From Lichtheimia corymbifera B2541 (Eukaryota; Mucoromycota; Mucoromycetes; Mucorales; Lichtheimiaceae): a DNA stretch of 44,851 nucleotides. A program made the position numbers and the translations under genes. The stretch covers positions 1 to 44,851 of the forward strand of contig JNEU01000903.1 in the NCBI GenBank assembly GCA_000697475.1. Direction: 5' to 3'. Below, piece by piece: positions 448 to 5,277 of this stretch; positions within the stretch are counted from its first letter, which is position 1, and every line of letters starts with the position of its first letter. Under the pieces are notes generated by a model. It worked only from the letters and a program-made list of their open reading frames with translations, was not told the origin of the DNA and ran no database searches.

Positions 448-521
448 GCTCGCTTAGCTCAGTTGGTTAGAGCGTGGTGCTAATAACGCCAAGGTCACAG
501 GTTCGACCCCTGTAGTGAGCA
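448..521 (+). tRNA. tRNA-Ile (anticodon AAT)
   Basis: A full cloverleaf can be drawn. The acceptor stem pairs GCTCGCT (448-454) with AGTGAGC (514-520), with discriminator A521. The D stem is GCTC/GAGC. The anticodon stem is TGGTG/CGCCA with the seven-base loop CTAATAA, giving anticodon AAT (A34, read as inosine) for isoleucine. The T arm is ACAGG-TTCGACC-CCTGT. There is no intron and no encoded CCA, as expected for a eukaryotic nuclear gene. The internal A box (TAGCTCAGTTGG) and B box (GGTTCGACCCC) are present. A retroelement-like unit begins 45 bp downstream. Confidence 0.96.
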
Positions 522-549
522 TTGATCCTTGAAGAACTCGGAAATCCTC

Positions 550-563
550 TTTTTTGTTTTTTT
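550..563 (+). terminator. Pol III T-run terminator of the tRNA gene
   Basis: Six T (550-555), one G, then seven T (557-563) lie about 30 bp after the tRNA 3' end, a normal RNA polymerase III stop. The second T-run abuts the target duplication of the downstream element, so the insertion lies immediately past the terminator. Confidence 0.7.
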
Positions 564-566
564 CTT
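563..566. repeat. Target-site duplication TCTT (partner at 4501-4504)
   Basis: The four bases before the left repeat (TCTT) recur directly after the right repeat. Extending to five bases fails (TTCTT against TCTTC). Four-base duplications are known for some LTR elements. Because the left copy lies in T-rich DNA, a chance match is possible. Confidence 0.6.
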
Positions 567-776
567 TGTCGGATGATATTTTAGATTTGTAATGTTGCAC
601 ATGCTGCGGTGCTGAGCAGCCTTTATAAAAGGCTGCTGCAACACCGAGAATAAATCTTTAGCTTTTGATCCGGTGAATCATAGTTCTTGTCTATATTGAG
701 CGGGTAGTTGTAAAGAGGTGTTTACATCCCTGGCTACGGTGTTATACCGCCAGACGACGCAAAAGGATATACGACA
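567..776 (+). repeat. Left LTR-like repeat (210 bp)
   Basis: Starts TGTCGGATG and ends ATATACGACA. It holds a TATAAAA box (624-630) inside an imperfect palindrome (608-645: GGTG, GCAGCC, TTTATAAAA, GGCTGC, CACC) and an AATAAA poly(A) signal (649-654) only 18 bp further on. The order promoter, start, poly(A) signal fits a compact U3-R-U5. No base differs from the right copy by eye. Confidence 0.88.
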
Positions 777-820
777 ATCATTACAATGACATTTCGATAG
801 AAGCCCCCGTCGGATTATCA

Positions 821-1714
821 ATGGATACATCAGGGAGAAAACCGATAAATCCATCATCCGCTCAGGTGCCTAGGGTGAAGAGCTATTTGACGAAGATTAA
901 TAATCCACCGTCCTATAGAAACACTCTAATGGCGATGGCAAAGCGGAATTGGAATGTTCCTTACTTAGAGGGTGCAATACCTTCGGCTGAAATGGTGTTG
1001 GAAACGGTTGAGAACATGTTTGATTGTTTGTGTAAACCGGGTTGGAGGGAAGGTTTTGAATCCTTTTCGACATTTACTTTCAAACACTTTTTCGACACAA
1101 ACAGTGAGTATGTCGGGAAACTTGCACCTGGAAAACCGGCAAAATTCGATCTGGATGCAATGTTACCTCCGGAGCTGCATTTCAAGAATGTTTTCGAAAA
1201 GCATACAAACATGTTGAAAGCAAAAACAAAGTTTTCTTTGGAAGGAAAAGAGGAGCATGAATATGTGATCAACGCGACTATTAATTATCATGGACCTGAA
1301 ACGAATGCCATTTCATCGTCAGTCTTTAGAAACGTTATCAGAAGGTTACAACCTTGGTTACGAGACGACGTTTGTATGATGATTGAGAAAGATCGACCGG
1401 CAGTAGAAAAATTTTTCTACAATGCTCTGCAGAAGAAGAAATCTATTATCAGTAACGGTAAGATTATACCGTTGGAGATAGACTACTCCAAATTCGACAA
1501 ATCTCAAACAGAACGTTGTGCGATGATTGAAATGTTGATCTACTCCTATTTAGGTTTAGATGAAAGTTTCGCAAATTATTGGTTCGCGTCATTGAAAAAA
1601 GCGTCGACTTATAACTATCACGATCTTATAAAGTGTTATTTCGAATGGCAACGTCGTACAGGGACAGCAACCACTGCTCTCGGAAATACAAGCCTTTTCC
1701 GCGTTTCTCGTTGA
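821..1714 (+). CDS. Alphavirus-like RdRp fragment, truncated after motif B
   Basis: An uninterrupted 297-codon frame 45 bp inside the left repeat. About residues 30-297 resemble the N-terminal and palm parts of a virga-like (alphavirus-like supergroup) RNA-dependent RNA polymerase. A KRNWNVP-type motif lies near residue 41. Motif A is DYSKFDKSQ, with the metal-binding D221 and D226. Motif B is RTGTATTALGNT, with N289. The frame then leaves the family and stops at 297, so motif C (GDD) and everything after it are missing; a catalytically complete polymerase is not encoded. Residues 1-30 are not recognised and may be non-viral. No frameshift or internal stop interrupts the retained part, which suggests recent acquisition or selection. 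A five-codon mini-ORF (786-800) precedes the start. A plant-type virus and a mycovirus cannot be told apart by eye; a mycovirus is more likely in a fungus. Confidence 0.85.
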   Translation: MDTSGRKPINPSSAQVPRVKSYLTKINNPPSYRNTLMAMAKRNWNVPYLEGAIPSAEMVLETVENMFDCLCKPGWREGFESFSTFTFKHFFDTNSEYVGKLAPGKPAKFDLDAMLPPELHFKNVFEKHTNMLKAKTKFSLEGKEEHEYVINATINYHGPETNAISSSVFRNVIRRLQPWLRDDVCMMIEKDRPAVEKFFYNALQKKKSIISNGKIIPLEIDYSKFDKSQTERCAMIEMLIYSYLGLDESFANYWFASLKKASTYNYHDLIKCYFEWQRRTGTATTALGNTSLFRVSR

Positions 1715-1802
1715 GAAACAAAGTTGCCTAGATTATTAACCCGCCTCGAATTTATTTTAGCCTAGACGAAACCAGCCTTTAACAAATCTTGCCTTATTTT
1801 AC

Positions 1803-3875
1803 ATGGAATCATTGTCCCGTGAGGCTATCGCCCTGGGGGTTTTGACCCCATGTATCGAGGAATTTATCCTCAAAAATTATATGAACGGCGATGCAGATGC
1901 GCGAAAATTTATGGAACTTGCGTTTCATAATGCCGGTAAGTCGTACCTACTTCATCCTAACGTTAGCATGAATGACAAGGCTTTGATGAGAGTCTTTTCA
2001 TCCGTTCCAATGCAATTGCAAAGGGTGTTGTATCAGGATTTTGAAGATTACGATCTTCTTTTTACTTCTACATGGAGTTCAAAAGAAAACTTTGTGGAAG
2101 GATTACGCGAGTGTGCTTACAAATATTGTGTGGATTTTACAAGGAAATTCGCTGACAGATATGTTACAATATCAAGTGAGTTCAGGAGTAAAGTCTTCAA
2201 CAATTATGATATGCACGTTTGTGCCTCTGTAAAAACTTCAGATGATTTCACCGTCATGTCACGTCAGTTGGAATTCTTGAAACGTTATTCATATCCAAAA
2301 GAAGACGTTTCGGTACGAGAAGGTTTGAAGAAGTTGTTGATCGGAGGAAAAATCAATACTGATGTTGTGTGTTGTAAACCACAGGAATGTAAACGAAAGT
2401 GTGACGTTTTATTGGTTGATCACACAGAGGTTTATATGCCTTTGGAACAAGTGGTTTTGACTATGTTGAACCACGGCGCCAAAAAAGCTATGGGATTTCT
2501 GTTCTTTCCTGATGGGTTCAATTATCGAAAGAAAGGAAATTTTGCCATGGATACACTATTTTTTGATAAAACAAAAGAAGTGTACATGGGAAAAGAAAAA
2601 CCAGTGTTGTTTTACACAAGACAAGGTTTGGTTTCTAAGAAACCATACTCAGTGGAGGAGTACGAGAAGTTTTTTAAGACTAGCGTCGTTGTTCATGACG
2701 GAAAGTCTTATTGTTTCGAAATTGTGAATCGAACATCTTCTCTCCTGTTTTACAACCTGGTGTATGATGGTCCGTTTAATCCCACGGCTGATCTACCAAG
2801 ACATAAGATAGTGCATAGAGATGCTTATACAAGAGTGGTTTCTTTTCGTCCAAAAAACATGTTTGTTTGCAAAAACTTTTCTGATTTCGAAAAAGTTGAA
2901 GCTTTCATTCCCACTGAATTGTTTGAGAAAGTGAGAGTTTACGCTTCGACATTGGGTACTAAAGACTTTCACAGAAAAGAGATACACTCTCGATTGAGGG
3001 CCACGTTTTTGCGTGTACAAAATGCATCTACCGGAGCTGTAACTACTTTTGAGGATGGATTGGATTCTAGAGATTTGGAGATTGCGACTGATGCCATTTG
3101 GACAACTGCCTTCTTTGAAAGAAGGAAAGGTGCTGAGTTGTTGGCACACCAAAAGAGTTTGTTACAGCGCACGTCCACGATTGGATTCAATTTTTCCACT
3201 TTGACCTTGTTGATAGAGTCCATAAACAAGGAATACAATCCTTTGAAGCACTTGTTCAATTATATTGGACAGGTTCAAAGTCGCTTCAGAGAAGAAGAAT
3301 TGAGTCGGTATATCCCGTATTACGAAAATTTGGGAGCGTTCACTGTTTATGGTGGAAAAGAAAACGTTTTGTCCTTGAGTTGTGACAATCTGTTTACGTT
3401 CAACTCTGACTTTATGCCTCCGTGGATAAAGAAGTTGTTGGAACCGATCAAAGAAAAGGGGGAAGACTTTATACAGGAGTTTAACAGAGTCTTGCCAGTG
3501 TCTACTCAGGAAAGTCTCAAGGAAAGTCCTTACTTTTCCATGTTACACAGGGATTTAAGTAATGTTGATTCCTTGGATTTCTATACCGAAGAAGAGGTGG
3601 TATTGCACTCGAATGTAACGAGTATGGGTGAGGAGAGGGATAATTTGTTAAAGAAACTTAATGATATCACCGACCCTATCACTCCCATAATGGATACCAT
3701 TCTTGTGGCTCGAAAGCATTACAGGGGGGTTGAAGAACCTCCTGAAAAAATAGACAACGGACCTATCGAAAGATTGAATGATGTTGTAAGAAGTACGCAG
3801 ATGTCTGTGGAGTATGTGTCTAGAAAAGTGGATCCCAGGACTGACGCATTCTATGACTTATACGACAATTGGTAG
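1803..3875 (+). CDS. Alphavirus-like replicase N-terminal part (capping methyltransferase)
   Basis: An uninterrupted 690-codon frame. About residues 110-420 fit the viral methyltransferase/guanylyltransferase domain of alphavirus-like replicases: a His in YDMHVC (about 138), a following acidic/Arg stretch, a Cys-rich segment with CCKPQECKRKC (about 190-200), the VDHTEVYMP block (about 205-213), and the downstream region with REIHSRLRA-like helices. In such viruses this domain caps viral RNA at membranes. The N-terminal Met may be the original replicase start, because the 88 bp before it resembles a short AT-rich leader. The helicase is absent; the frame ends at residue 690 with charged linker-like sequence. 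It lies downstream of the RdRp piece, the reverse of the viral order. I assign it from motif layout; an alignment is needed to place it in a family. Confidence 0.75.
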   Translation: MESLSREAIALGVLTPCIEEFILKNYMNGDADARKFMELAFHNAGKSYLLHPNVSMNDKALMRVFSSVPMQLQRVLYQDFEDYDLLFTSTWSSKENFVEGLRECAYKYCVDFTRKFADRYVTISSEFRSKVFNNYDMHVCASVKTSDDFTVMSRQLEFLKRYSYPKEDVSVREGLKKLLIGGKINTDVVCCKPQECKRKCDVLLVDHTEVYMPLEQVVLTMLNHGAKKAMGFLFFPDGFNYRKKGNFAMDTLFFDKTKEVYMGKEKPVLFYTRQGLVSKKPYSVEEYEKFFKTSVVVHDGKSYCFEIVNRTSSLLFYNLVYDGPFNPTADLPRHKIVHRDAYTRVVSFRPKNMFVCKNFSDFEKVEAFIPTELFEKVRVYASTLGTKDFHRKEIHSRLRATFLRVQNASTGAVTTFEDGLDSRDLEIATDAIWTTAFFERRKGAELLAHQKSLLQRTSTIGFNFSTLTLLIESINKEYNPLKHLFNYIGQVQSRFREEELSRYIPYYENLGAFTVYGGKENVLSLSCDNLFTFNSDFMPPWIKKLLEPIKEKGEDFIQEFNRVLPVSTQESLKESPYFSMLHRDLSNVDSLDFYTEEEVVLHSNVTSMGEERDNLLKKLNDITDPITPIMDTILVARKHYRGVEEPPEKIDNGPIERLNDVVRSTQMSVEYVSRKVDPRTDAFYDLYDNW

Positions 3876-4290
3876 CTGATGAAGTTTCTTTCCACTTGCC
3901 TGCTGCTTCCTCTTCACCCTCCGTATCAAGTTTTTTCTCAAGGTTGTTTCTCCAACGCAAGCTGGTTTCTATGCTCGTTGTGCGGTGTGCTCGTCTGGTT
4001 CTCTGTTGTTTGTCCTTCCTCTCCTCTCTGTGCAAAATCTACTATCCTTTGGTCTCGCTGCTTGGTCCTCTTTGTTTTCTCGTTTTTGCCTTTGTGCCGT
4101 CGTGAGCCCTGGCCGAGTAGCCAATAAGTGCTCTGTTTTCGTTCTTGCCCGTGTGCCGTCTTGCTTCGTGATCTGGACGTTAAACCTTCTTCGTGGTCTT
4201 GTCTTCTCGTTTCGTTTCTCTTTTGGTGCCCTGCTGTCGTTTCTATGGTGATTATGTACGAGGACGTACAACAGTTTGGAGGGAGGATAA
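3876..4290 (+). other. Pyrimidine-rich internal tail and polypurine tract
   Basis: Composition changes sharply after the replicase stop. About 3880-4250 is strongly C/T-rich on the plus strand, so several overlapping frames stay open on both strands without looking like protein. Its origin is unknown (element-native or captured). It ends in GGAGGGAGGATAA (4278-4290) directly before TGTCG, which is placed exactly like a plus-strand primer tract of an LTR retroelement. Confidence 0.55.
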
Positions 4291-4500
4291 TGTCGGATGA
4301 TATTTTAGATTTGTAATGTTGCACATGCTGCGGTGCTGAGCAGCCTTTATAAAAGGCTGCTGCAACACCGAGAATAAATCTTTAGCTTTTGATCCGGTGA
4401 ATCATAGTTCTTGTCTATATTGAGCGGGTAGTTGTAAAGAGGTGTTTACATCCCTGGCTACGGTGTTATACCGCCAGACGACGCAAAAGGATATACGACA
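4291..4500 (+). repeat. Right LTR-like repeat (210 bp)
   Basis: A copy of 567-776 with the same ends, the same TATAAAA (4348-4354) in the same palindrome, and the same AATAAA (4373-4378). If the element behaves like a retrotransposon, this copy would supply the poly(A) site. The identity of the two copies implies a young insertion or recent gene conversion. Confidence 0.88.
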
Positions 4501-5277
4501 TCTTCGCGTATGGTCACGTGATTATTTTGCTGCCAGAGCTGGTTTCTACATGCACAATTGCCCCGTAGCATCTTTTTTCGAAGTTTTCTAGTGGTTATGA
4601 CCTTTATTCCTTGTGTATCATACTAGTTCTCATTTTGGGTATCATGTAAGATAGTCATTAATGCGCTTTATCCATGGTACTAAGGTAATAATAAGCGACA
4701 CTGTTATCAACTTAGTAATACAAGCTTCTCGCCTTCTCGGCAAATGATGATTCTTCAAAGGCAGAAGAATGTGCATTGAGAATTATCAAAGGCGCCTTAT
4801 GTTACTCATTACTCGCTCCTGTGTGAGGCAAGTACCTGTAATAATAGCGCATGAACACGAAAAGTGCTGGGGCGGTGATATTAGGAAGATTGCAAGAACA
4901 CGAGAGCAGATGAGTGTTTTAGTATAATACACCACATAGTTAGGATCAGTGACTAAACGCTGCATTAACGTAAGAAAATCCAATCTTTTATAATACTAGC
5001 GATATCATCAGACACTATCATTTCAATCTTTCTTCTTTAACAAGCTACATTTTCATTAAAACATAGGACCGTTGAAAAGTACTCTAGTTTGATAGGGAAT
5101 CACGTAGTCCAAATCATGCAAATACAGCAGTAATTTTATTGCAGCATGTTCCATTAAGTACTGGCATTGAATGTGATGATAAACAAAGAAGAGCAATGTA
5201 ACAATGGAATTCATCTGGGATCAAGTAAAGACCGCACAATCGCAAGAGTGAGAAGACCCATAGTCCTCCATTTCCTT
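4501..5277. other. Intergenic DNA without a recognisable gene
   Basis: AT-rich sequence between the element and the 3' end of the SWIB gene. A 65-codon minus-strand frame (4786-4983) has no family resemblance and no splice context. I see no RNA gene. Confidence 0.5.

What the first reader, a model, noticed from the sequence alone, without database searches (positions are those of the whole stretch)
567..4500. LTR-bounded element whose cargo is an RNA-virus replicase, not gag-pol
Seen: two 210-bp TGTCG...CGACA direct repeats, TCTT on both sides, a purine tract before the right repeat, and between them two intact ORFs with alphavirus-like RdRp motifs A and B and capping-domain motifs. Known: endogenous non-retroviral virus pieces are usually naked insertions or lie beside retroelements. 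Here the viral sequence sits inside a unit with its own LTRs, as if packaged, reverse transcribed and integrated as retroelement cargo. Such a unit could spread virus-derived sequence through the genome and feed an RNAi or dominant-negative antiviral response.
Basis: partly seen in the sequence, partly recalled or inferred. Interest (0 to 1): 0.96.

Follow-up and report, generated by a model that had tools for sequence, protein, structure and literature searches.

The report
RNA-virus gene caught inside a retrotransposon
In a eukaryotic, probably fungal, genome a small non-coding retrotransposon carries, between its left end and its primer site, two parts of one RNA-virus polymerase gene in swapped order, most likely because the copying enzyme strayed onto viral RNA at an 11-letter match and came back, which would show letter by letter how an RNA virus can enter a chromosome.

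Summary
Window 567-4500 is a 3,934-bp LTR element: identical 210-bp LTRs, TCTT on both sides, a polypurine tract. Two other loci carry it complete and virus-free: 843 bp, non-coding, with 4-bp target duplications and a primer site matching 12 nt of the own initiator tRNA. The window copy holds 3,091 extra bases exactly between U5 and primer site. ORF1 is a clear RdRP_2 fragment (E 1.1e-41), cut after motif B, without GDD. The two 'ORFs' are one viral gene in permuted order: in four close relatives the counterpart of ORF2's end runs straight into that of ORF1's start. Both junctions lie on TATACGACAAT, at once LTR end plus spacer and viral coding sequence. The viral sequence is single-copy in this assembly. 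A Ty3/gypsy relative with an open pol frame shares the primer site; one copy has this LTR in front and its own behind, as strand transfer at that spot would give. I read it as a first-generation capture: reverse transcriptase left its template just past the primer site, copied viral RNA and returned. The mechanism is inferred; packaging, spread and antiviral function are unsupported.

The parts
448..521 (+). tRNA-Ile(AAT) gene; the element starts 45 bp beyond its 3' end
   Evidence: ARAGORN; Rfam RF00005
563..566 (.). left target-site duplication TCTT
567..776 (+). 5' LTR, 210 bp, TGTCG...CGACA, with TATAAAA (624-630) and AATAAA (649-654)
   Evidence: identical to 4291-4500; 22 matches in the own genome; motifs read
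768..778 (+). left copy of TATACGACAAT: last 9 nt of the LTR plus AT; shared with the viral coding sequence
   Evidence: only 11-nt same-strand identity between viral stretch and 843-bp element, none of 12 or more
779..1690 (+). viral piece A: start of the RdRp domain to motif B (frame also open upstream of the ATG at 821)
   Evidence: RdRP_2 E 1.1e-41, PF00978 match at 788-1693; 57-62% identity to P0001-P0004 over 260-292 aligned residues of 821-1690
821..1714 (+). ORF1, 297 aa, RdRp fragment without motif C (GDD); last 7 codons not homologous to the relatives
1690..1691 (+). rejoining point inside the viral stretch: similarity to relatives ends after GNT of motif B
1691..1802 (+). 112 nt, inferred viral 5' untranslated region; no significant overall fold
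   Evidence: position before the ATG; single-copy in the genome; fold z 0.87; viral origin is inference
1803..3875 (+). ORF2, 690 aa: viral piece B, the part of the same viral protein that precedes the RdRp domain; last codon and stop come from the retroelement
   Evidence: residues 421-690 align with the pre-RdRp part of P0004 (E 6e-11) and P0008 (E 3e-12), E-values for a 13-protein database
3859..3869 (+). right copy of TATACGACAAT
   Evidence: 3,091 bp from the left copy
3870..3881 (+). primer-binding site TGGTAGCTGATG, displaced 3,091 bp from U5
   Evidence: complementary to the 3' end (with CCA added) of initiator tRNA-Met, three gene loci in the own genome
3868..4290 (+). 423-bp non-coding internal region of the miniature element
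   Evidence: 99% identical at C324 and C269, cut by the contig end at C140
4278..4290 (+). polypurine tract
   Evidence: similar stretch before the 3' LTR of the gypsy element
4291..4500 (+). 3' LTR, identical to the 5' LTR, virus-free
4501..4504 (.). right target-site duplication TCTT

Best explanation
Window 567-4500 is a miniature, non-coding LTR retrotransposon that holds, between its 5' LTR and its primer-binding site, two pieces of one RNA-virus replicase gene in swapped order, most likely inserted when reverse transcriptase left its template for viral RNA at an 11-nt identity and later returned there. Shown: the virus-free 843-bp element, its 4-bp target duplications and its primer site for the own initiator tRNA; the 3,091-bp addition with TATACGACAAT at both edges; the permuted order of the viral gene; its single-copy state in this assembly; a Ty3/gypsy relative with an open pol frame and the same primer site, and a copy of it with this element's LTR in front and its own behind. 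Inferred: the gypsy element supplies the enzymes. The excursion happened after second-strand transfer, when the minus strand had copied the primer site, the AT spacer and 9 nt of U5, because an excursion at that late step changes the 5' side alone. The enzyme copied sense viral RNA towards its 5' end, continued on viral RNA at motif B (by a jump, or because the template was circular or head-to-tail), reached the same 11 nt again and went back to U5. The product then integrated 45 bp past tRNA-Ile. Predicted: a further cycle would put the virus into both LTRs; no such copy was found here.
For: Identical LTRs; 22 LTR matches; two complete virus-free 843-bp copies and one cut by a contig end. Matching 4-bp flanks in 9 of 13 LTR loci readable on both sides. 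Primer site equals 12 nt of the complement of the own initiator tRNA end. RdRP_2 E 1.1e-41. Permutation: ORF2 residues 421-690 match the pre-RdRp part of P0004 (residues 1-70), P0008 (7-161), P0006 (1-69) and weakly P0003 (1-87); the ORF1 frame matches from residue 71, 163, 71 and 89 on, that is 0 or 1 residue later. Alignment scores 132, 151, 77 and 60 against maxima of 49, 58, 45 and 52 in 300 shuffles each. Both edges lie on the only 11-nt same-strand identity between virus and element, flush with the primer site. The viral frame is in sense with the element, as plus-strand viral RNA copied into the minus strand would give. Hybrid C153: this LTR, the shared 20 nt, then gypsy internal sequence and the gypsy 3' LTR up to the contig end; its left flank TGTC equals the right flank of the same element on C389, and C399/C34 pair as CCAC.
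Against: An 11-nt match somewhere between the two sequences is ordinary: 107 of 300 simulated viral sequences had one at least as long, and the real pair has two more 11-nt matches on opposite strands. Template switching needs the same 11 nt twice plus one non-homologous step; a single crossover with a viral DNA circle would need fewer joins. There are no reads to prove the junctions, and the LTR is repetitive. The C153/C389 pairing rests on a 4-bp match and on contig ends, one other right flank (C57, TGAT) does not fit either left flank, and TGTC is also the start of the LTR. Mobilisation by the gypsy element is inferred from the shared primer site and the hybrid, not tested. More distant relatives with long N-termini (P0005, P0007, P0009, P0010) show no match to ORF2 residues 421-690 at E 10, and P0012 one at E 0.048 at an unrelated place.
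Confidence: 0.58

Rival explanations
1. The miniature element integrated first; later a circular viral cDNA recombined with it on the chromosome at the 11-nt identity (single crossover or microhomology-driven replication), so the LTR element is only the landing site.
For: One circularisation and one crossover explain permutation and both 11-nt edges in two steps; the joint is the longest same-strand identity. LTR identity cannot separate the orders, because the LTRs of other copies are also nearly identical.
Against: 11 bp is short for homologous recombination (established knowledge). The site falls flush with the primer site, where reverse transcription changes templates; a random place in 843 bp would do so in a few per cent of cases (inference). 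The hybrid C153 suggests template exchange at the same boundary.
Confidence: 0.25
2. The composite is a working virus-bearing retrotransposon or a kept antiviral gene: transcribed from the LTR, its truncated RdRp acts as dominant negative or feeds RNA interference.
For: Both frames are open without stops; the LTR carries TATA-like and AATAAA motifs.
Against: Single copy; displaced primer site; identical LTRs mean it is young, so open frames need no selection; the polymerase lacks GDD. No expression data.
Confidence: 0.08
3. Assembly artefact: viral sequence from elsewhere in the genome joined to LTR copies.
For: The LTR is repeated, and several LTR copies lie within about 700 bp of contig ends.
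Against: The outer flanks share a 4-bp duplication as other copies do; both inner edges share one 11-nt sequence that also fits the viral coding sequence, which mis-joining would hardly produce; the viral sequence is found nowhere else in the assembly.
Confidence: 0.07

Closest known systems
eBxnv-1, nodavirus-like RdRp inside a Bel/Pao LTR element of Bursaphelenchus xylophilus (Cotton et al. 2016, PMC5177903; parts 1 and 2 of 4 of the text read)
   Same: Non-retroviral plus-strand RdRp gene between two LTRs identical over 132 nt, with primer site and polypurine tract; single copy; authors propose copy-choice during reverse transcription.
   Different: There the carrier is a degenerate Bel/Pao element without gag, otherwise seen as 9 fragments and isolated LTRs. 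Here it is a non-coding miniature element with complete virus-free copies in the same genome and a gypsy relative with open pol frame; the viral gene is permuted and both junctions lie on one 11-nt identity.
LCMV-IAP recombinants (Geuking et al. 2009, Science; seen only as reference 37 in PMC5177903, otherwise recalled)
   Same: A retrotransposon joins a non-retroviral RNA virus to retroelement sequence.
   Different: Experimental, in a mammalian system; not a fixed genomic locus with both LTRs (recalled).
Plant non-retro RNA virus sequence with retroelement ends (Tanne and Sela 2005; seen only as reference 38 in PMC5177903)
   Same: Called by Cotton et al. the one earlier natural example they knew.
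Terminal-repeat retrotransposons in miniature (TRIMs; recalled)
   Same: Short LTRs, primer site, polypurine tract, no coding capacity, moved in trans.
   Different: This copy carries 3 kb of RNA-virus sequence between LTR and primer site.
Jiviviruses, pucciniviruses and viviviruses: segmented Martellivirales-like viruses with an Mtr1-RdRP protein (PMC12282112, passages)
   Same: Polymerase with a long, poorly recognised domain in front of it in one protein, as in the relatives P0003, P0004, P0006 and P0008.
   Different: No virus of these groups was compared here; the best named hits are 2a-type polymerases (P0007, P0009 'Ilarvirus APLPV', P0010) at 26-30% and Blueberry virus A at 21%. Assignment is an inference.

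Membership tests
Non-autonomous LTR retrotransposon (TRIM-like) | Two LTRs, target-site duplication, primer site, polypurine tract | tested here: met
   in the window copy the primer site is not next to the 5' LTR
Non-autonomous LTR retrotransposon (TRIM-like) | No gag-pol, several short copies | tested here: met
   virus-free 843-bp element complete at C324 and C269, cut at C140
Non-autonomous LTR retrotransposon (TRIM-like) | Moved in trans by an autonomous partner | tested here: inconclusive
   same primer site, similar 3' end and a hybrid copy with gypsy; movement itself not testable
Ty3/gypsy element (the proposed helper) | Domain order protease, reverse transcriptase, RNase H, integrase | tested here: met
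   Pfam on L030 266-3931; of gag only a zinc knuckle was seen
Non-retroviral endogenous viral element | RNA-virus gene joined to host DNA | tested here: met
   RdRP_2 E 1.1e-41, flanks with a tRNA gene; by assembly only, reads not available
Martellivirales-like virus with Mtr1-RdRP protein | RdRP_2 polymerase domain | tested here: met
Martellivirales-like virus with Mtr1-RdRP protein | Long domain in front of the RdRp in the same protein | tested here: met
   read from relatives P0004, P0006, P0008 and weakly P0003
Martellivirales-like virus with Mtr1-RdRP protein | Methyltransferase (capping) domain | tested here: inconclusive
   Chropara_Vmeth E 0.069; fold model pLDDT 34.6
Intact RNA polymerase | Motif C GDD | tested here: not met

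The most novel reading that the evidence does not exclude
The insert is exactly one turn (3,091 nt) of a circular or head-to-tail viral template copied into a retrotransposon by its reverse transcriptase: a frozen excursion at second-strand transfer, and genomic evidence that retroelement enzymes and circular (or concatenated) copies of defective RNA-virus genomes meet in fungi.
Probability: 0.33. Interest if true: 0.86.

Novelty: new variant of a known kind. Interest (0 to 1): 0.74.

Why it matters
How RNA viruses without reverse transcriptase enter chromosomes is mostly guessed from worn relics. Here the carrier, its virus-free copies, a candidate enzyme source, the primer tRNA, the target duplication and both junctions are all readable, so the step at which the virus was captured can be named and tested. 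If right, it suggests that second-strand transfer at the primer site is a weak point through which foreign RNA can enter LTR elements, and that even the smallest non-coding elements can carry a virus gene into a chromosome.

Tried and rejected
Other viral copies in the genome: none by ORF1 protein, ORF2 protein, DNA of 777-1900, PF00978 or PF01443. PF01443 rang in 12 of 14 cellular control genomes and in none here, so it is a poor test; PF01660 was not searched in the genome. Protein search with ORF1: 2 hits among 372 candidates; with the RdRp alignment: 13 hits among 3,630; with ORF2: no hit at E 0.001, 7,995 candidates scored. Viral contigs with the RdRp alignment and with ORF2: 92 and 19 pattern matches, none confirmed. 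PDB by sequence: RdRp weakly to nsP4 polymerases (4 sequences, best E 0.00018), ORF2 nothing. AlphaFold of ORF2 residues 1-420: pLDDT 34.6, no fold search made. Fold of the inferred 5' untranslated region: not better than shuffles (158 of 200 fold at least as well). First idea, two viral segments (one per ORF), was dropped after one search showed one continuous protein in relatives. An 11-bp target duplication from a LINE-like insertion was dropped because the 11 nt also fit the viral coding sequence. Papers: searches were listings; passages only of PMC9603141, PMC12282112, PMC12548735, PMC7482067; I saw no report of this locus there, which is no proof of absence.
Full report
What is there. 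Window 567-4500 is bounded by two identical 210-bp repeats with TCTT outside both and a polypurine tract before the right one. The LTR gives 22 matches, partial ones included, in the 35-Mb genome that holds the window. At C324:194569-195411 and C269:21708-22550 the same LTRs enclose only 423 bp of non-coding sequence, and C140 has a copy cut by the contig end. The window copy is this 843-bp element plus 3,091 bp. The 22 matches fall into 17 loci by my count. Of 13 readable on both sides, 9 have matching 4-bp flanks; of the four that do not, three are truncated LTRs and the fourth, on C374, is complete. Three loci were read on one side only (C153, C140, C88), and C336 starts at a contig end and was left out. 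The primer site TGGTAGCTGATG matches 12 nt of the complement of the 3' end, CCA added, of the genome's initiator tRNA-Met, found at three loci (of the seven listed matches one is the same gene on the other strand and three are not tRNAs). The window's LTRs are identical and its internal region differs from C324 and C269 at 3 of 423 positions, which points to recent activity.

What the cargo is. ORF1 matches RdRP_2 at E 1.1e-41 and metagenome proteins P0001-P0004 at 57-62%; similarity ends after GNT of motif B, and GDD is missing. Named relatives are 2a-type polymerases of plant viruses (one labelled Ilarvirus) at 26-30% and Blueberry virus A at 21%. ORF2 alone finds nothing. But its residues 421-690 align with the stretch in front of the RdRp in P0004 (40% over 72 residues) and P0008 (28% over 156), less in P0006 (30% over 70) and weakly in P0003 (22% over 88, E 0.021), and the ORF1 frame starts 0 or 1 residue later in each. 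P0001 and P0002 do not reach upstream; the more distant P0005, P0007, P0009 and P0010 do and show no match to ORF2. So the two ORFs are the front and middle parts of one viral protein, in swapped order, rejoined near 1690/1691. The 112 nt before ORF2 are inferred to be viral 5' untranslated sequence. A capping domain in ORF2 is plausible, because jivi-, puccini- and viviviruses are reported to carry a divergent Mtr1 in front of the RdRp (PMC12282112, passages), but it is not shown here.

The junctions. The sequence TATACGACAAT stands at 768-778 and 3859-3869. In the virus-free element it is the last 9 nt of U5 plus the two bases before the primer site; in the viral gene it falls on the YDN stretch that P0004 also has. 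It is the only 11-nt same-strand identity between viral stretch and element, and there is none longer; two other 11-nt matches are on opposite strands. A same-strand match that long is expected in about a third of random pairs (107 of 300 simulations); what is telling is that both edges fall on it and that it lies flush with the primer site.

How it likely arose. Reverse transcription of an LTR element (established knowledge) ends with second-strand transfer at the primer site, after which the minus strand is extended into U5, R and U3 of the 5' LTR. A detour at this step changes the 5' side only, as seen; a detour at the start of minus-strand synthesis would have put virus into both LTRs. The sense orientation fits a plus-strand viral RNA template. 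I infer that the minus strand, 11 nt past the primer site, switched to viral RNA, copied to its 5' end, continued on viral RNA at motif B, met the same 11 nt again and returned. Whether the middle step was a jump or a circular or head-to-tail template cannot be told.

Supporting case in the same genome. L030 (C153) has an open 1,222-aa frame with zinc knuckle, protease, reverse transcriptase, RNase H and integrase, about 99.9% identical on C399, C57 and C389. C399 has its own, different LTR before the same primer site. C153 has instead the 210-bp LTR of the window's family in front, joined within a shared 20 nt, and the gypsy LTR behind, up to the contig end. TGTC left of C153 equals the bases right of the element on C389; CCAC left of C399 equals those on C34; C57 has TGAT and pairs with neither. 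Such a two-faced element is what second-strand transfer between two co-packaged molecules would give. Mobilisation of the miniature element by this gypsy family is therefore likely but not proven, and contig ends limit the reading.

What it is not. The viral sequence is single-copy in this assembly and no other RdRP_2 match was found in the genome, so there is no sign of spread. With the primer site 3.1 kb away from U5, a new cycle would give 3.3-kb LTRs with virus in both; none is seen. Function in antiviral defence is untested.

Host. Of 16 listed ORFs of 200 aa or more right of the element five were scanned: they have BTB-Kelch, GATA, Sir2 and PLU-1/PHD domains, and one a male-sterility domain just under its cut-off. 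I read this as a fungus, perhaps an early-diverging one; that is an inference and no call tested it.

Known or new. Retroelement capture of RNA-virus sequence has been proposed for eBxnv-1 (PMC5177903, parts 1-2 of 4 read), whose authors cite Geuking et al. 2009 as an experimental demonstration (seen as a reference only). Different here, as far as I could see, are the miniature carrier with virus-free copies beside it, the permuted viral gene, both junctions on one 11-nt identity, and a hybrid sister element made at the same boundary.

Noticed in passing
window 521-567 and 12 other LTR loci readable on both sides: LTR copies sit on the 3' side of tRNA genes: 8 of 13 loci within 120 bp, five of them at 42-46 bp. 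Looks like targeted integration about 45 bp past tRNA genes.
   Followed up: partly
window 4515-4520 and other insertion sites: A CACGTG palindrome lies within 60 bp of the insertion in 8 of 13 two-sided loci and 3 of 4 loci read on the upstream side only (one of them the gypsy copy C399), 9 of these 11 at 11-16 bp; background is 13 in 40,347 bp of the window, this one included. Might be a targeting signal or a feature of tRNA surroundings.
   Followed up: partly
L030 (G000:C153:1-6500), L062, L063, L064: Young Ty3/gypsy family, copies about 99.9% identical, one with a foreign 5' LTR.
   Followed up: yes
P0006 and P0008 (longest metagenome contigs 4,261 and 6,187 bases): Relatives whose polymerase frame breaks off shortly after the RdRp start although the contigs are long; may be endogenous fragments in other genomes.
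   Followed up: no
window 615-637 and 4339-4361: Palindrome-like AGCAGCCTTTATAAAAGGCTGCT in the LTR encloses the TATA-like box.
   Followed up: no
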